Below, piece after piece: positions 2 to 4,338 of a DNA stretch of 6,888 nucleotides. Each line of letters begins with the position of its first letter. The first letter of the stretch is position 1. The stretch spans positions 1 to 6,888 of the forward strand of contig JAEOUK010000258.1 in the NCBI GenBank assembly GCA_016839385.1, read 5' to 3'. This DNA comes from Promethearchaeota archaeon (GTDB lineage Archaea; Asgardarchaeota; Lokiarchaeia; Sigynarchaeales; MK-D1). The notes under the pieces were generated by a model. The model was not told where the DNA came from, ran no database searches, and saw only the letters and a list, made by a program, of their open reading frames with translations. The position numbers and the translations under genes were made by a program.

Positions 2-649
2 AAAGGAGTTGAAGGACTAAACTGGTTCCGTAAAGATAGGTGGTTGAACGCTGAATCCCATACACAGAAAACAGGATTACCGGGTGTATTTGCGGGTGGA
101 GATATGTTGAAACCCGGACTTATGATAGAAGCAATTGGTCATGGGCGTACTGGTGCTCAATCTATTGATATGTACCTTGGTGGTACAGGGAAACTCTACA
201 TAGAGGATAATGTAACCATCCCATTACCAGAAATAAATCCGAATAATTGGAACACAAAACGACATCATGTAGATGAAATATCCCAAAGGGAACGTGATAC
301 AACTTTCAAAGAAGTGTCGTTGGGATTAAATGACAAAACTGGTCATATTGAGCCAATTCGATGCATTGGGTGTGCTATTATGCAAATAGATACTAATAAG
401 TGCATTGGATGTGGAACTTGCATAAAAAATTGTCCCGCTCAAGCAATATCCTTTAATTTAATGAAAAAATATTATGTATTTGGAGAAAGAATAATTCGTA
501 AAGCAGTAATTGATCCAAAATTATGTTTATGTTGTGGATTATGTGGCTCAGAATGCCCAGTAAATGCTATTTCAACTGTTAATTGGAATGATGGATTATA
601 TTTTGAAGAAATCGAATTATTTCTAAGGCAATCGGGAGGAAATAAATAG
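2..649 (+). CDS. GltD-like FAD/NAD(P)H oxidoreductase with C-terminal two-cluster ferredoxin domain (5' partial)
   Basis: The frame is open to the left edge, so the N-terminus and most of the FAD- and NAD(P)-binding domains lie outside the window. The first ATG or TTG inside is not the real start. What remains begins with the C-terminal FAD-contacting motif of the glutamate-synthase small-subunit family (LPGVFAGGD, then IEAIGHGRTGAQSID, about 80-171). A Cys pair follows (RCIGC, 359-373), the position where this family usually has EAxRCLxC. Next come two classical CxxCxxCxxxCP motifs (about 401-436 and 524-559), each expected to bind a 4Fe-4S cluster. Such proteins pass electrons between NAD(P)H, FAD and ferredoxin-type clusters in the cytoplasm. 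The stop TAG (647-649) overlaps the GTG start of the MvhD-like gene, so the two products probably form one complex. The physiological donor and acceptor cannot be read from this fragment. Confidence 0.88.
   Translation, partial: KGVEGLNWFRKDRWLNAESHTQKTGLPGVFAGGDMLKPGLMIEAIGHGRTGAQSIDMYLGGTGKLYIEDNVTIPLPEINPNNWNTKRHHVDEISQRERDTTFKEVSLGLNDKTGHIEPIRCIGCAIMQIDTNKCIGCGTCIKNCPAQAISFNLMKKYYVFGERIIRKAVIDPKLCLCCGLCGSECPVNAISTVNWNDGLYFEEIELFLRQSGGNK
634..640 (+). promoter_or_regulatory. Strong Shine-Dalgarno site for the MvhD-like gene
   Basis: GGGAGGA lies 8 bases before the GTG at 649, inside the last codons of the upstream oxidoreductase gene. It is the clearest ribosome binding site in the window. 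It decides in favour of the GTG start over the later in-frame ATG at 697, and it shows that the downstream gene was built to be translated, coupled to the one before it. Confidence 0.75.
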
Positions 650-1092
650 TGGCACGAAAGAATCGAGCGATACAACAGTCAACAAGTTCAACTGTAATGA
701 CCAATACTCCAAAAATTGTTGCTTTCATTTGTAACTGGCAAAGTAAAGATAAGAAGAAACACGTCGATTTTGTGGAAAAAAAATATTCAGCAAAAATAAA
801 ATTCTTCCGAGTTATGTGTGCTGCAAGGATTGACCGTGCTCTACTTTAGAAATGTGTTCAAGAAAAAATAGATGGTATTTTCATTGGAATTTGTAATCAT
901 GAAATGTGTCATTATCGTGGTGCTCTTGAGTTATCAGAACAACGTTTCGAGAACACTATCGATCTTCTCGATGCTCTTGGATATGATAAATCACGGATTC
1001 AAGTGTATGAAGATGATGGAGATAGTACAAATTCTCTACCAAAAGTGTTAGAGGAATTTACACAAAAAGTAAATGAATTGGGTGAATATTGA
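649..1092 (+). pseudogene. mvhD: MvhD-like hydrogenase/Hdr iron-sulfur subunit, split by one in-frame UAG
   Basis: The frame has 148 codons including the stop, close to the usual MvhD length of about 140. In methanogens MvhD carries a 2Fe-2S cluster and passes electrons from the hydrogenase to HdrA. Family motifs appear in order: IVAFICNW near codons 23-30, RVMCAARID near codons 54-62, ICNHEMCHY near codons 81-90, and a C-terminal EEFTQKVNELG. A TAG at 847-849 (codon 67) falls between the second and third motifs. Both halves share one frame, so an indel error cannot explain it; only a substitution or genuine UAG read-through can. Without read-through the products would be a 66-residue fragment and, if ATG 904 is used, a 62-residue fragment that splits the ICxxxxC motif. 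The second Cys of the usual CNWC is Gln (codon 739-741). I favour a recent nonsense mutation or a single-base assembly error; UAG decoding is less likely. Confidence 0.72.
847..849 (+). other. In-frame UAG codon inside the MvhD-like gene
   Basis: The TAG sits where methanogen MvhD has a hydrophobic helix residue (the Leu of FILKAF-type sequences), two residues after an aligned Leu-Leu. A Leu TTG codon would become TAG by one base change. No second stop occurs in the 81 codons from 850 up to the final TGA at 1090-1092. Two other genes here (the oxidoreductase and the sulfatase) appear to end in TAG, which speaks against routine UAG decoding in this genome. Confidence 0.8.
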
Positions 1093-1098
1093 ATTTGA

Positions 1099-1554
1099 TT
1101 ACTGAATATAACAAACCATTATCTCAACATCTGTATCTTTAAACACTTTTTTGATTATTTCCCTTACTTTTTCCCATTTCTTTTTATCTAACCCGGATGC
1201 AATTTTTGGCATTGCCAGTTTGGTTATTTTTTCTTTTACAATCTGATTTTTCATCTGGATAAGAGCTTCTTCCAAATTTTCGTAAGTGGGTATATTCCAA
1301 TAGCGTTCTTTTGTGATTAAATTGAATACACGGGTTCCTTCGGTTTTTATGCAAGTAGGATGTTTTAATTCTGCTTCACTTTTTTTTGCTAAAAGAGATC
1401 GTATTTTGAACTTCTTGTTGAAATGATAAGCAATTCCCGCATCCATTTGCTTGTCGGAGCTAATACAATGAACTAGATGATATTCCGAGCCAACTGAAAA
1501 TAAGTCTTGTTGAACTTCTCGAAACTCCATTAATAATCTATGGTTCCCAGTCAT
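1099..1554 (-). CDS. TARG1/OARD1-like macrodomain ADP-ribosyl (O-acyl-ADP-ribose) hydrolase
   Basis: This 151-residue single-domain protein resembles human TARG1 (about 152 residues) nearly end to end. The shared motifs are DLF (D17, the expected adenine-contacting Asp), VHCIS (28-32), DAGIA plus a following KKF, NLITKERYWNIPTYENL (78-94) and MPKIASGLD (115-123). TARG1 acts through Lys84 in LITK and Asp125 in GLD; both are present here as K82 and D123. That predicts removal of ADP-ribose from Glu/Asp side chains or deacylation of O-acyl-ADP-ribose in the cytoplasm. The usual Gly before the Asp of the first motif is Gln. The ATG at 1554 overlaps the sulfatase stop by 17 bases. A second ATG at 1530 gives 143 residues and starts where TARG1 homology begins; neither has a convincing Shine-Dalgarno, so the start is open. 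It is the last gene of a three-gene minus-strand run. Confidence 0.85.
   Translation of the reverse strand: MTGNHRLLMEFREVQQDLFSVGSEYHLVHCISSDKQMDAGIAYHFNKKFKIRSLLAKKSEAELKHPTCIKTEGTRVFNLITKERYWNIPTYENLEEALIQMKNQIVKEKITKLAMPKIASGLDKKKWEKVREIIKKVFKDTDVEIMVCYIQ
1147..1186 (+). terminator. Possible T-tract terminator for the redox operon
   Basis: Several T-runs (about 1147-1152, 1168-1172 and 1181-1185) follow the MvhD-like stop codon by 55-95 bases. Archaeal intrinsic termination needs little beyond T-tracts, so plus-strand transcripts could end here. The same bases encode a lysine-rich part of the macrodomain protein on the other strand (KKKWEKVREIIKKVFK), which alone would explain them. No hairpin is evident. 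Confidence 0.25.
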
Positions 1555-2902
1555 AAATATATCTTTGTGGACTTTTCTCTGGTACTAGAGGTTCTTGAAT
1601 TTCTCCTTTCAGAGCAGGATCATTCGTGGTCTCTAAAAATTTCATTAGCTGTTTTCTTAGTTCTTTTTTAATATTCGTATATTTTTGATTATAAGCAAGG
1701 TTTGATAATTCGTCAGGATCGGTTTCCAAATCATATAATTCCTCCTCAGGACGTGAACTGTAATACTCTGGGTGTTCTTTTAGGTAGGCTTTTCCCGACA
1801 AAGAAGTGGAAATATCATCCGGTATTTCAAATAGGAAGTCTAATGGAACAAAGTTACGAATATATTTCCATTTTTTTGTTCGAATGCACCGAATTGGATT
1901 AAATCCAATATCATGAAATGTTAATTCTCCATGAATTTTTTCTCGAGGAGAATATCTAAATTTAGAATTCTGTAAAAGCAACCCTGCAATACTTCTCCCT
2001 TGAATATCCCTAGGAATAGATACACCAGCGATATCAAGTATTGTAGGAAAGATGTCAATGTTTGAGACGAGATCATCAATCTTTCTTCTCCCGGGCACCA
2101 TTGAGGGCATATTTATAATTAGGGGAACACTCAATCCTGAATCATATAATGTGCACTTATGTCGAGGAAAAGGAATGCCATGATCCACTGTGAAGATAAT
2201 TAGAGTATTTTTAGCAATAGACGATTCATTAATTAAAGTATGAATTTTGCCGATATAATTATCTAGACTCTTCACACAAGAAACAAAATCTAATAAATCC
2301 TGTTTGACAGAAGAACTGTGTTGTGGAAGAGTTAAAGGTACAATTACTTCTTCTGGATCAACAGGAAATCGTGGTTTGGAAGTATTAAATGGACTGGAAT
2401 TATCTTCTAATCCATTAAAACGGTGAGTTTCAAAAAATCCTACTGAACAAAAAAACGGTTGTTGAATTTCTCCATTATCTACTTGTTTTATGAATTTCTT
2501 GAAACGACGAACTACACTCGTTCCCATATGGGGAAAATCAGATCGTGGGGAGGTTGTATCATATCCTAGTTTCTTGGGTTTATGGTGTGTATGTTGAAGT
2601 CCGATTAGATGTGTTGAGTATCCCGCAGTTTTCAAGAGTTGTGGAAGAGTATTATTATTTTCAGGAAGATCCCATCCCATATTCGTCAATCCCATTAACC
2701 CGTTAGAATGGGGCATTTTACCAGTTAATATTCCCCCACGACTTGGAGTACACTGAGGAGCGCAAGAAAAATGTTGAGTTAAGGAGACTCCTTCATTCGC
2801 TAATTTATCAATATTAGGTGTATTCACTGGTTTTCCATAGCAACCAAAATAAGTCCCAGTGTCATGAGTGATTATGAAAATAACATTCGGTTTGGTTTTC
2901 AT
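1538..2902 (-). CDS. Sulfatase, heparan N-sulfatase (SGSH)-like type I family
   Basis: The 454-residue protein covers a full type I sulfatase, which hydrolyses sulfate esters or sulfamates using a formylglycine. The core signature CTPSRGGILTG starts at C51, the Cys to be oxidised, with R55 following; an FGE or anSME maturase would be needed and is not in this window. Other active-site elements are HD (13-14), H160, D240-H241 in TVDHG and K249. The sequences CAPQCTPSR, LPENNNTLPQLLKTAGY and DHGIPFPRHKCTLYD are typical of N-sulfoglucosamine sulfohydrolase relatives, and the C-terminus has the common LYDLETDPDELSNLA. The first metal-binding position, usually Asp-Asp, is His-Asp. There is no signal peptide: MKTKPNVIFI is already the first core strand, so it looks cytoplasmic. 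Its ATG overlaps the previous gene's TGA (ATGA), indicating translational coupling. The exact substrate is not readable; heparan-like N-sulfate is one option. Confidence 0.9.
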   Translation of the reverse strand: MKTKPNVIFIITHDTGTYFGCYGKPVNTPNIDKLANEGVSLTQHFSCAPQCTPSRGGILTGKMPHSNGLMGLTNMGWDLPENNNTLPQLLKTAGYSTHLIGLQHTHHKPKKLGYDTTSPRSDFPHMGTSVVRRFKKFIKQVDNGEIQQPFFCSVGFFETHRFNGLEDNSSPFNTSKPRFPVDPEEVIVPLTLPQHSSSVKQDLLDFVSCVKSLDNYIGKIHTLINESSIAKNTLIIFTVDHGIPFPRHKCTLYDSGLSVPLIINMPSMVPGRRKIDDLVSNIDIFPTILDIAGVSIPRDIQGRSIAGLLLQNSKFRYSPREKIHGELTFHDIGFNPIRCIRTKKWKYIRNFVPLDFLFEIPDDISTSLSGKAYLKEHPEYYSSRPEEELYDLETDPDELSNLAYNQKYTNIKKELRKQLMKFLETTNDPALKGEIQEPLVPEKSPQRYIYDWEP

Positions 2903-4338
2903 ACGGGTTCTGCGTCCTTAAGCAGTTTATAATAGTTTTTTCGAACGTATTCTCCCGCGAGAGGACTAAAACTCGTAAAAGCCTCATAACCACCAACGGT
3001 TATGTATTCATTGAGTGGTAATAAATAAGCTATCCAATCATTAGAATTTTGAAAAATAAACGTATTCTTTCTACCTAATGGAGAATTATTATAGAATTCT
3101 TCTGCGATATCTTCAAATAATTCACCCGGAATTCCTGAAATAGAGAGATTTTTCTTTTTATCCTTAGTCCCAATTGTAATATAATGAACCACACTTTCAA
3201 CAACAAATTCGCTATTTTGACGCCTAACTGAAAATCCAGGAAAATTAGGTTTCTTGGATTCACTCATTATAAGGGGAAATCGAATCAAAATATGTTTTTT
3301 GAATAAGAATTTCAATCTATTCCCAAACCAGACTTTGGATTTATACTTTGTAAAATCTTTCATTGGGATAATAAATCTTCTAAGGTGGGTGTTAAATTCC
3401 ATTTTGTCAAAATAATCCTTATTCTGCAATGTTTTATATAGTTCAAAAGTTTTCTCTGCAAGTATTTGACCAATTCTTTTAGTATCTTCATATGTTCCCC
3501 ACTGAGAATAAATTGAATTTTCATTAATTAACGTATTTTTATGTTCTTTTGCTAACTCATCGAAATCCGTCCCACATGTAGTGATTGGATTTATATCTCC
3601 AGCTGGTGAGGTGAAAAATGCGACATTCAATTTATAATCTGAAATTTTATGGAGATGATTTACTAGTATTCCCGGATAATCTGCAGAGAGCATATTAATC
3701 TGTGAATTCAATGTAGTAGGGTGCATCGCATATGTTACTATCAAACCAATATTTTTCTTAGATTTCTTTTCACGAATGTCTATGATTCCTAAATCAGATT
3801 TCGATTTTCTATCTGGATGTCTTCGATTTATTATCAAGTTATCCTCTATTTTCTTTTTTGTCCATGCAATTTCACACTCTATAAGCTCAGACTTTAACTT
3901 TTCAATTAAATACAGTAGTTTTTTTGAAACCCAAACGTTGTATCTATCATCCATATAGTATGATCCGAACATTATCCCCTTCATAAATCCAACAATCCCA
4001 GTAGGAAATTGGAATTCTCCTCCTTGATCAAAGGATTTATGAGTATGTGTGCAGTGAACTAGCACATTTTCTGGAGGAATTGCAAATTGTGTTTGAATTT
4101 TTGATTTCAAATAATCAGTATATGCTATTGGAAGTTTGAGAAAATCCAATGAAAATAATATCAAGTAATTCCCACTATTTTCAAAAAGAAACGCGGAACC
4201 GTGGATATCGTCCAATTTACCATAACAAAAATTACCATATCCTGCTAAGGGTTTTCCTCGATAATTATCTGGTGTTAGATTCACCCGTCCAAAAGCCGCT
4301 TTCATAAAAATCAATTGGTGTTGAAGATTTTTAATCAT
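2899..4338 (-). CDS. Neutral/alkaline ceramidase-family hydrolase lacking the catalytic Ser
   Basis: The match is to the N-terminal catalytic domain of neutral ceramidases (Pfam neutral/alkaline non-lysosomal ceramidase): NLTPD near residue 20, LAGYG at 31-35, DDIHGSAFLF at 43-52, VHCTHTH at 94-100, YAMHPTTLN at 203-211, SPAGDINP at 244-251, and NEYITVGGYEA at 443-453. The zinc ligands of the Pseudomonas enzyme (two His, one Glu, one Tyr) have plausible counterparts in H98 or H100, H206, E444 and Y451. Its nucleophilic Ser, in GDVSP, is Asn here (N250), so ceramide hydrolysis should not be assumed. At 479 residues it lacks the C-terminal Ig-like domain and any signal peptide. Family homology begins at the second Met (MKAAFGRVN, ATG at 4305), which I slightly prefer; the 4338 ATG has only a weak, distant AGGA. 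It is the first gene of the minus-strand operon. Confidence 0.82.
   Translation of the reverse strand: MIKNLQHQLIFMKAAFGRVNLTPDNYRGKPLAGYGNFCYGKLDDIHGSAFLFENSGNYLILFSLDFLKLPIAYTDYLKSKIQTQFAIPPENVLVHCTHTHKSFDQGGEFQFPTGIVGFMKGIMFGSYYMDDRYNVWVSKKLLYLIEKLKSELIECEIAWTKKKIEDNLIINRRHPDRKSKSDLGIIDIREKKSKKNIGLIVTYAMHPTTLNSQINMLSADYPGILVNHLHKISDYKLNVAFFTSPAGDINPITTCGTDFDELAKEHKNTLINENSIYSQWGTYEDTKRIGQILAEKTFELYKTLQNKDYFDKMEFNTHLRRFIIPMKDFTKYKSKVWFGNRLKFLFKKHILIRFPLIMSESKKPNFPGFSVRRQNSEFVVESVVHYITIGTKDKKKNLSISGIPGELFEDIAEEFYNNSPLGRKNTFIFQNSNDWIAYLLPLNEYITVGGYEAFTSFSPLAGEYVRKNYYKLLKDAEPV

What the first reader, a model, noticed from the sequence alone, without database searches (positions are those of the whole stretch)
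847..849. A single in-frame UAG splits an otherwise continuous MvhD-like gene
Seen directly: TAG at codon 67, same frame on both sides, family motifs RVMC before it and ICxxxxCHY and EFTxKxxELG after it, and no other stop until TGA at 1090. An indel error cannot cause this. The options are a fresh nonsense mutation (one step from Leu TTG), a base-call error, or UAG decoding (suppression or pyrrolysine, known from some archaea). Against general decoding, two other genes in the window seem to end at TAG; if the sulfatase TAG were read through, it would gain a tail overlapping the macrodomain gene. For a functional frame, the Shine-Dalgarno and all remaining motifs are intact.
Basis: partly seen in the sequence, partly recalled or inferred. 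Interest (0 to 1): 0.75.

Follow-up and report, generated by a model that had tools for sequence, protein, structure and literature searches.

The report
Stop codon interrupting an archaeal MvhD gene
A small iron-sulfur electron-transfer gene in a DNA fragment from an Asgard (Lokiarchaeota-like) archaeon carries one ordinary in-frame stop codon where its relatives have leucine, most likely a fresh inactivating mutation or a sequencing error and not a new way of reading the genetic code.

Summary
An MvhD/FlpD gene (649-1092, +) is open except for TAG at codon 67 (847-849). Read through, it matches PF02662 end to end and 13 full-length homologues, 13 of 13 with Leu there. The window is syntenic with one Lokiarchaeota MAG (L001/G001), where the gene is intact and the codon is TTG.

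The exciting reading is not supported. PylS passes its cut-off in 2 of 227 Asgard genomes, not in G001. G001 also lacks PylB, PylD over cut-off, a tRNA-Pyl match and a CUA anticodon among its tRNA calls. Two other window genes end in TAG where their L001 counterparts end. The TAG replaces a helix leucine, and no notable RNA fold follows it. The locus is known from one contig and its genome is not held, so reads are uncheckable and Pyl in that organism is not strictly excluded.

Verdict: a single-substitution nonsense lesion, real (about 0.58) or a consensus error (about 0.33); sense decoding about 0.04. A G001 paralogue has TGA at its CxxC cysteine, the published selenocysteine pattern. Ordinary; low interest.

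The parts
649..1092 (+). MvhD/FlpD-family gene, interrupted (148 codons with GTG start and TGA stop)
   Evidence: PF02662 5e-25 on the read-through; 13 full-length homologues
847..849 (+). in-frame TAG at codon 67
   Evidence: homologues have Leu in 13 of 13; L001 has TTG
634..640 (+). Shine-Dalgarno-like GGGAGGA before the GTG start
   Evidence: read from sequence
904..1092 (+). in-frame ATG fragment after the stop (62 aa, from residue 86 of the full frame); lacks the first three strands and Cys28, Cys57 and Cys82
2..649 (+). C-terminal part of the upstream FAD/4Fe-4S oxidoreductase (GltD-like in the full-length relative), ending in TAG 647-649 overlapping the MvhD start
1099..1554 (-). macrodomain-like gene, intact
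   Evidence: Macro 4e-4, below Pfam's cut-off; 60.6% identity to the L001 counterpart
1538..2902 (-). sulfatase, intact, ending in TAG (complement of 1538-1540)
2899..4338 (-). ceramidase-like gene, intact
   Evidence: PF04734 just under cut-off; 64.9% identity to L001
4423..6888 (+). glycoside hydrolase family 2 gene, running off the contig end

Best explanation
The TAG is a normal stop codon created by one base change at a conserved leucine codon (TTG in the syntenic relative). Translation ends after 66 residues, so this allele makes no functional MvhD. The truncated product lacks two of the four modelled beta-strands (76-82 and 117-122), the two long helices (90-109 and 130-144) and two of the four cysteines 28, 57, 82 and 87 (Cys82 and Cys87). 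It is a recent loss-of-function allele in a Lokiarchaeota-like Asgard archaeon, because the rest of the gene still looks constrained. Shown: stop, homology, Leu in all homologues found, synteny, no Pyl genes detected in the relative. Inferred: that the mutation is real and fresh, and that the product is dead.
For: Leu at position 67 in 13 of 13 homologues and in the two PDB MvhD chains displayed (of 6 hits). L001, syntenic over all six genes, has TTG and an open frame. TTG is the only Leu codon one substitution from TAG, and TTG is 31 of 189 Leu codons in the window genes. No other internal stop in the six genes (2,273 codons). Substitution pattern is alike before and after the stop (codon positions 1-3: 0.33/0.18/0.58 and 0.34/0.21/0.55). 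The window protein breaks 4 of 48 columns invariant in the others, one of them the TAG; P0006 breaks 4 and P0013 breaks 5. No PylS over cut-off in G001, no PylB match, PylD only 19 bits against a 150-bit cut-off, no tRNA-Pyl match, and no CUA anticodon among 45 tRNA calls (overlapping loci give some genes twice) on 40 tRNA-family loci.
Against: No reads, and the locus is on one contig only, so an error is not excluded. No second lesion marks the gene as a decayed pseudogene. The organism's own genome is not held, and G001 is only 58-73% identical per protein, so the absence of decoding machinery in the window's own organism is inferred, not seen.
Confidence: 0.58

Rival explanations
1. Consensus or base-call error in a metagenome contig: the organism has a Leu codon there and the gene is intact.
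For: A single substitution with everything else intact. The locus is seen on one 6,888-bp contig only, with no second assembly to confirm it. The remainder of the gene shows no clear decay.
Against: No other internal stop in 2,273 codons, so the error density of the contig is not visibly high. Window MvhD has the highest MvhD/macrodomain distance ratio of 10 species (0.93; others 0.67-0.88), a weak hint of relaxed constraint.
Confidence: 0.33
2. UAG is read as an amino acid here, by pyrrolysine insertion or by an amber-suppressor tRNA (the published orphan tRNA-Pyl of some Lokiarchaeia would be a candidate).
For: The frame is intact on both sides. PMC9723677 (section 12 and found passages seen) reports a full Pyl system in Sifarchaeia and tRNA-Pyl without Pyl genes in Lokiarchaeia and Thorarchaeia. 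Here 2 of 227 Asgard genomes have PylS over cut-off with tRNA-Pyl(CUA) beside it.
Against: G001 has no PylS, PylB or PylD over cut-off and no tRNA-Pyl match and no CUA anticodon among its tRNA calls. The site is a helix Leu, not a known catalytic position. None of the 13 homologues has a stop there, and none of the listed MvhD matches in 227 genomes has an internal TAG (list cut). Two window genes end in TAG at their homologous ends. No notable RNA fold after the TAG (z +0.46).
Confidence: 0.04
3. The gene is now expressed as two pieces: a 66-aa N-terminal half and a re-initiated C-terminal half from ATG 904.
For: An in-frame ATG follows 54 bases after the stop, and the downstream part is conserved.
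Against: The second piece would start after strand 3 and Cys82. A search with the N-terminal piece returned nothing, but it did not return the window's own piece either, so short pieces may be missing from the database and this is weak.
Confidence: 0.03

Closest known systems
MvhD/FlpD family (PF02662), delta subunit of methyl-viologen-reducing hydrogenase and HdrA-associated electron-transfer protein
   Same: Domain match over its whole length; alignment A1 matches solved MvhD chains as a profile, among them 5odc_D and 8rvu_F; encoded directly after an FAD/4Fe-4S oxidoreductase
   Different: Interrupted by TAG. This subfamily has CNWQ where the two solved chains displayed have CNWC. Its partner in the relative scores best with PRK12771 and glutamate-synthase models, below their cut-offs, and only weakly with HdrA models
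Pyrrolysine (UAG) decoding of Sifarchaeia (PMC9723677)
   Same: In-frame UAG in an Asgard archaeon
   Different: No PylS, PylB or PylD over cut-off and no tRNA-Pyl match in the syntenic relative; a structural Leu in a redox protein, while PMC9723677 (section 12) stresses active sites of methyltransferases
VhuD-type selenoprotein (UGA, CxxU)
   Same: Same domain family with an in-frame stop; an example in G001 (L085) has TGA at the second Cys of CxxC; PMC13188914 passages list MvhD/VhuD as CxxU
   Different: There the codon is UGA at a cysteine position; here it is UAG at a leucine
Single-substitution nonsense alleles / pseudogenes
   Same: One base from a sense codon, frame otherwise intact, homologues intact
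   Different: No difference seen; reality not yet confirmed by reads

Membership tests
MvhD/FlpD domain family (PF02662) | whole-domain profile match over the curated cut-off | tested here: met
   88.3 bits against 22.3, profile 1-123 of 123, on the read-through
MvhD/FlpD domain family (PF02662) | single uninterrupted reading frame | tested here: not met
   TAG at codon 67
VhuD (NCBIfam NF045873) | score over the curated cut-off | tested here: not met
   42 bits against 215
Pyrrolysine-containing protein | pylS in the organism | tested here: inconclusive
   window's genome not held; not over cut-off in syntenic relative G001; 2 of 227 Asgard genomes positive
Pyrrolysine-containing protein | tRNA-Pyl(CUA) in the organism | tested here: inconclusive
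   no match in G001 by BLAST with the G177 tRNA-Pyl and no CUA among its tRNA calls; own genome not held
Pyrrolysine-containing protein | PylC in the organism | not tested
   no PylC search was run
Pyrrolysine-containing protein | UAG position conserved as UAG in homologues | tested here: not met
   Leu in 13 of 13
Pyrrolysine-containing protein | UAG rare as a stop (reported for Pyl archaea, but not for Sifarchaeia, PMC9723677 passages) | tested here: not met
   2 of 5 genes whose stop lies in the window end in TAG; a very small sample
Nonsense mutation / pseudogene | stop one substitution from the sense codon of relatives | tested here: met
   TTG in L001, the one relative with DNA at hand; TAG here
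Nonsense mutation / pseudogene | stop present in raw reads | not testable with these tools
   no reads; one contig only

The most novel reading that the evidence does not exclude
The lineage keeps a CUA-anticodon tRNA (such as the orphan tRNA-Pyl reported in some Lokiarchaeia) charged with a standard amino acid, and it suppresses UAG inefficiently. UAG could then drift into sense positions such as this leucine while still terminating genes.
Probability: 0.03. Interest if true: 0.7.

Novelty: new member of a known kind. Interest (0 to 1): 0.1.

Why it matters
As it stands it matters little: one interrupted gene in one contig. If UAG were read as sense here, it would be a code variation in the archaeal phylum closest to eukaryotes and could explain why tRNA-Pyl relics persist in some Lokiarchaeia. 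The practical lesson is a contrast within one gene family: UGA at the CxxC cysteine of a paralogue (L085) looks like real recoding, while UAG at a leucine does not.

Tried and rejected
Search for truncated relatives with the 66-aa N-terminal piece: no candidate, not even the window's own piece. First genome-contig scan with the single read-through protein: none confirmed; repeated with alignment A1, which gave L001 plus 79 distant loci (at most 35% identity) that were not used. Phylum search for a closer genome with the macrodomain: 5 of 227 match, G001 best at 60%. RNA fold after the TAG: weaker than the shuffle mean (z +0.46); the same stretch of L001 is near the mean too (z -0.40). Rfam on the window: 0 matches at gathering scores. 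Promoter and terminator scan of 600-1150: at chance. Papers: 'pyrrolysine' with 'Lokiarchae' gave 17, 15 listed, of which I opened PMC9723677 (found passages and section 12). 'Pyrrolysine' with 'MvhD' gave 12, 10 listed; no listed title is about Pyl in MvhD, and I opened only PMC13188914 (found passages). Two searches for archaea that read all TAG as Pyl, which I recall as published, found no such paper in this library. YN00 rates failed, and NG86 dS is above 1.5 or not computable, so dN/dS was not used. PylC was not searched.

A relative-rate test was run to see whether the gene had been decaying for long. The window MvhD/macrodomain distance ratio is the highest of 10 species (0.93; others 0.67-0.88), but its MvhD branch (0.345) equals those of L001 (0.349) and the 73-kb contig (0.345). 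I do not count it as evidence of decay. MvhD and macrodomain proteins were paired for 8 database contigs by equal longest-contig length (inference), with L001 as the ninth partner; the 4 of 13 MvhD homologues without such a partner were left out.

Full report
OBSERVATION. The frame 649-1092 (+) holds one internal stop, TAG at 847-849, codon 67. Read through, the 147-residue protein matches PF02662 FlpD over the whole profile at 5e-25. It matches 13 database proteins of 148-149 residues at 59-67% identity over 99-100% of the query. In the alignment 13 of 13 have Leu at position 67, inside the nearly uniform stretch LLKCVQEK. The other five genes examined in the window have no internal stop; the total examined is 2,273 codons, terminal stops included.

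WHERE IT COMES FROM. No genome is held for the window. The window's macrodomain protein is known from one contig of 6,888 bases, the window's own length, so the locus is most likely a metagenome contig seen once. The one close relative reached is L001, a 'Candidatus Lokiarchaeota archaeon' MAG (whole genome handle G001). Among 227 genomes of its phylum no other has the MvhD above 34% identity in the listed matches or the macrodomain above 54%. Its gene order and strands are the same as the window's: oxidoreductase, MvhD, macrodomain (-), sulfatase (-), ceramidase-like (-), GH2 (+). Protein identities are 72.6, 58.5, 60.6, 69.1, 64.9 and 64.6%. The organism is therefore an Asgard archaeon of the same broad lineage, but not a close species (inference).

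THE CODON. In L001 the MvhD frame is open and codon 67 is TTG; in the window it is TAG. TTG is the only Leu codon one base from TAG, and it is 31 of 189 Leu codons in the window genes. Identity to L001 and the distribution of differences over codon positions are alike before and after the stop: 58% and 60%; 0.33/0.18/0.58 and 0.34/0.21/0.55. Of columns invariant in all other sequences, the window protein breaks 4 of 48, one of them the TAG itself; the others break 0 to 5. The downstream part therefore looks constrained until recently. One result leans the other way: the mean MvhD distance relative to the macrodomain distance is highest for the window among 10 species (0.93; others 0.67-0.88), although its MvhD branch length equals that of two others. 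Pairing of the two proteins rests on equal contig lengths.

IS UAG READ AS SENSE? PylS (TIGR02367) passes its cut-off in 2 of 227 Asgard genomes, G177 and G178. Both have a tRNA-Pyl(CUA) beside it. G001 has only sub-cut-off PylS matches (2, best 9.7e-6), no PylB match and 19 bits for PylD against a cut-off of 150. BLAST with the G177 tRNA-Pyl gives no match in G001; 21 of 227 genomes match at E up to 0.1, of which only G177 and G178 are strong (next best 5e-4, G172). The Rfam tRNA search of G001 gave 40 matches, with 150 of 256 first candidates scored, so it may be incomplete. ARAGORN with introns made 45 tRNA calls on the 40 loci, some genes twice because loci overlap, none with CTA. The three unresolved loci (L173, L174, L176) I read by eye as Tyr-GTA, Phe-GAA and Lys-CTT (sequences; my reading). 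PylC was not searched.

PMC9723677 (section 12 and found passages read) says Lokiarchaeia lack the Pyl cluster but that tRNA-Pyl sequences were detected in Lokiarchaeia genomes, role unknown. That keeps a suppressor reading alive for the window's own organism, which cannot be searched.

UAG also terminates genes in this window. The upstream gene ends at TAG 647-649 within about a residue of its L001 counterpart, and the sulfatase ends at TAG at its homologous end (454 and 456 aa). Past their TAG the frames run 15 and 25 residues before the next stop. No notable RNA structure follows codon 67 (z +0.46).

STRUCTURE. The AlphaFold2 model (mean pLDDT 76.5, pTM 0.73, 14 sequences, K as placeholder at 67) places residue 67 in helix 63-71, between the second and third strands (49-55, 76-82). 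Ending at 66 removes strands 76-82 and 117-122, helices 90-109 and 130-144, and Cys82 and Cys87 of the cysteines 28, 57, 82 and 87, which are invariant in the alignment. The fragment should be non-functional (inference).

A CONTRAST THAT HELPS. G001 has a distant MvhD paralogue with one in-frame TGA (L085). It reads MCWK-(TGA)-GYGAGD, so the TGA sits at the second Cys of CxxC (my alignment by eye to CNWC). PMC13188914 (passages read) lists MvhD/VhuD as a CxxU selenoprotein family and says most sequenced Lokiarchaeia/Helarchaeales use Sec. That is what a recoded site in this family looks like. The window's TAG has another codon, another kind of residue and no conservation as a stop.

CONCLUSION. 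The best reading is a single-substitution nonsense lesion, real and recent (about 0.58) or a consensus error (about 0.33). UAG decoding is about 0.04 and split expression about 0.03. Reads across 847-849 would decide between the first two. Interest is low.

Noticed in passing
L085 (G001:C11:129209-129604, - strand): MvhD paralogue with in-frame TGA at the second Cys of its CxxC motif (MCWK-TGA-GYGAGD), most likely a VhuD-type selenoprotein (family listed as CxxU in PMC13188914).
   Followed up: partly
window 730-741 and alignment A1 columns 28-31: The window's MvhD subfamily has CNWQ where the two solved MvhD chains displayed have CNWC: one cysteine of the CxxC motif is replaced by Gln in the window protein and its 13 homologues (one of them CNFQ).
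   Followed up: partly
L001 6866-10447: The MvhD partner genes in the relative are a CCG-domain (GlpC/TfrB-like) protein and a GltD-like FAD oxidoreductase with C-terminal 4Fe-4S clusters, with only weak HdrA-model scores; possibly a distinct electron-transfer module of this Loki lineage.
   Followed up: partly
proteins P0023, P0024 (contigs of 82,020 and 155,108 bases): Two Promethearchaeota contigs encode the neighbouring macrodomain, but no MvhD from a contig of that length is among the 13 homologues; MvhD may be absent or broken there too.
   Followed up: no
L090 (G178:C93:54560-54985): A distant MvhD match in one of the two PylS-bearing Asgard genomes has an internal TAA.
   Followed up: no
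G178: PylS, PylB and tRNA-Pyl are present but no PylD match was found, unlike G177; this may be MAG incompleteness.
   Followed up: no
   Followed up: partly
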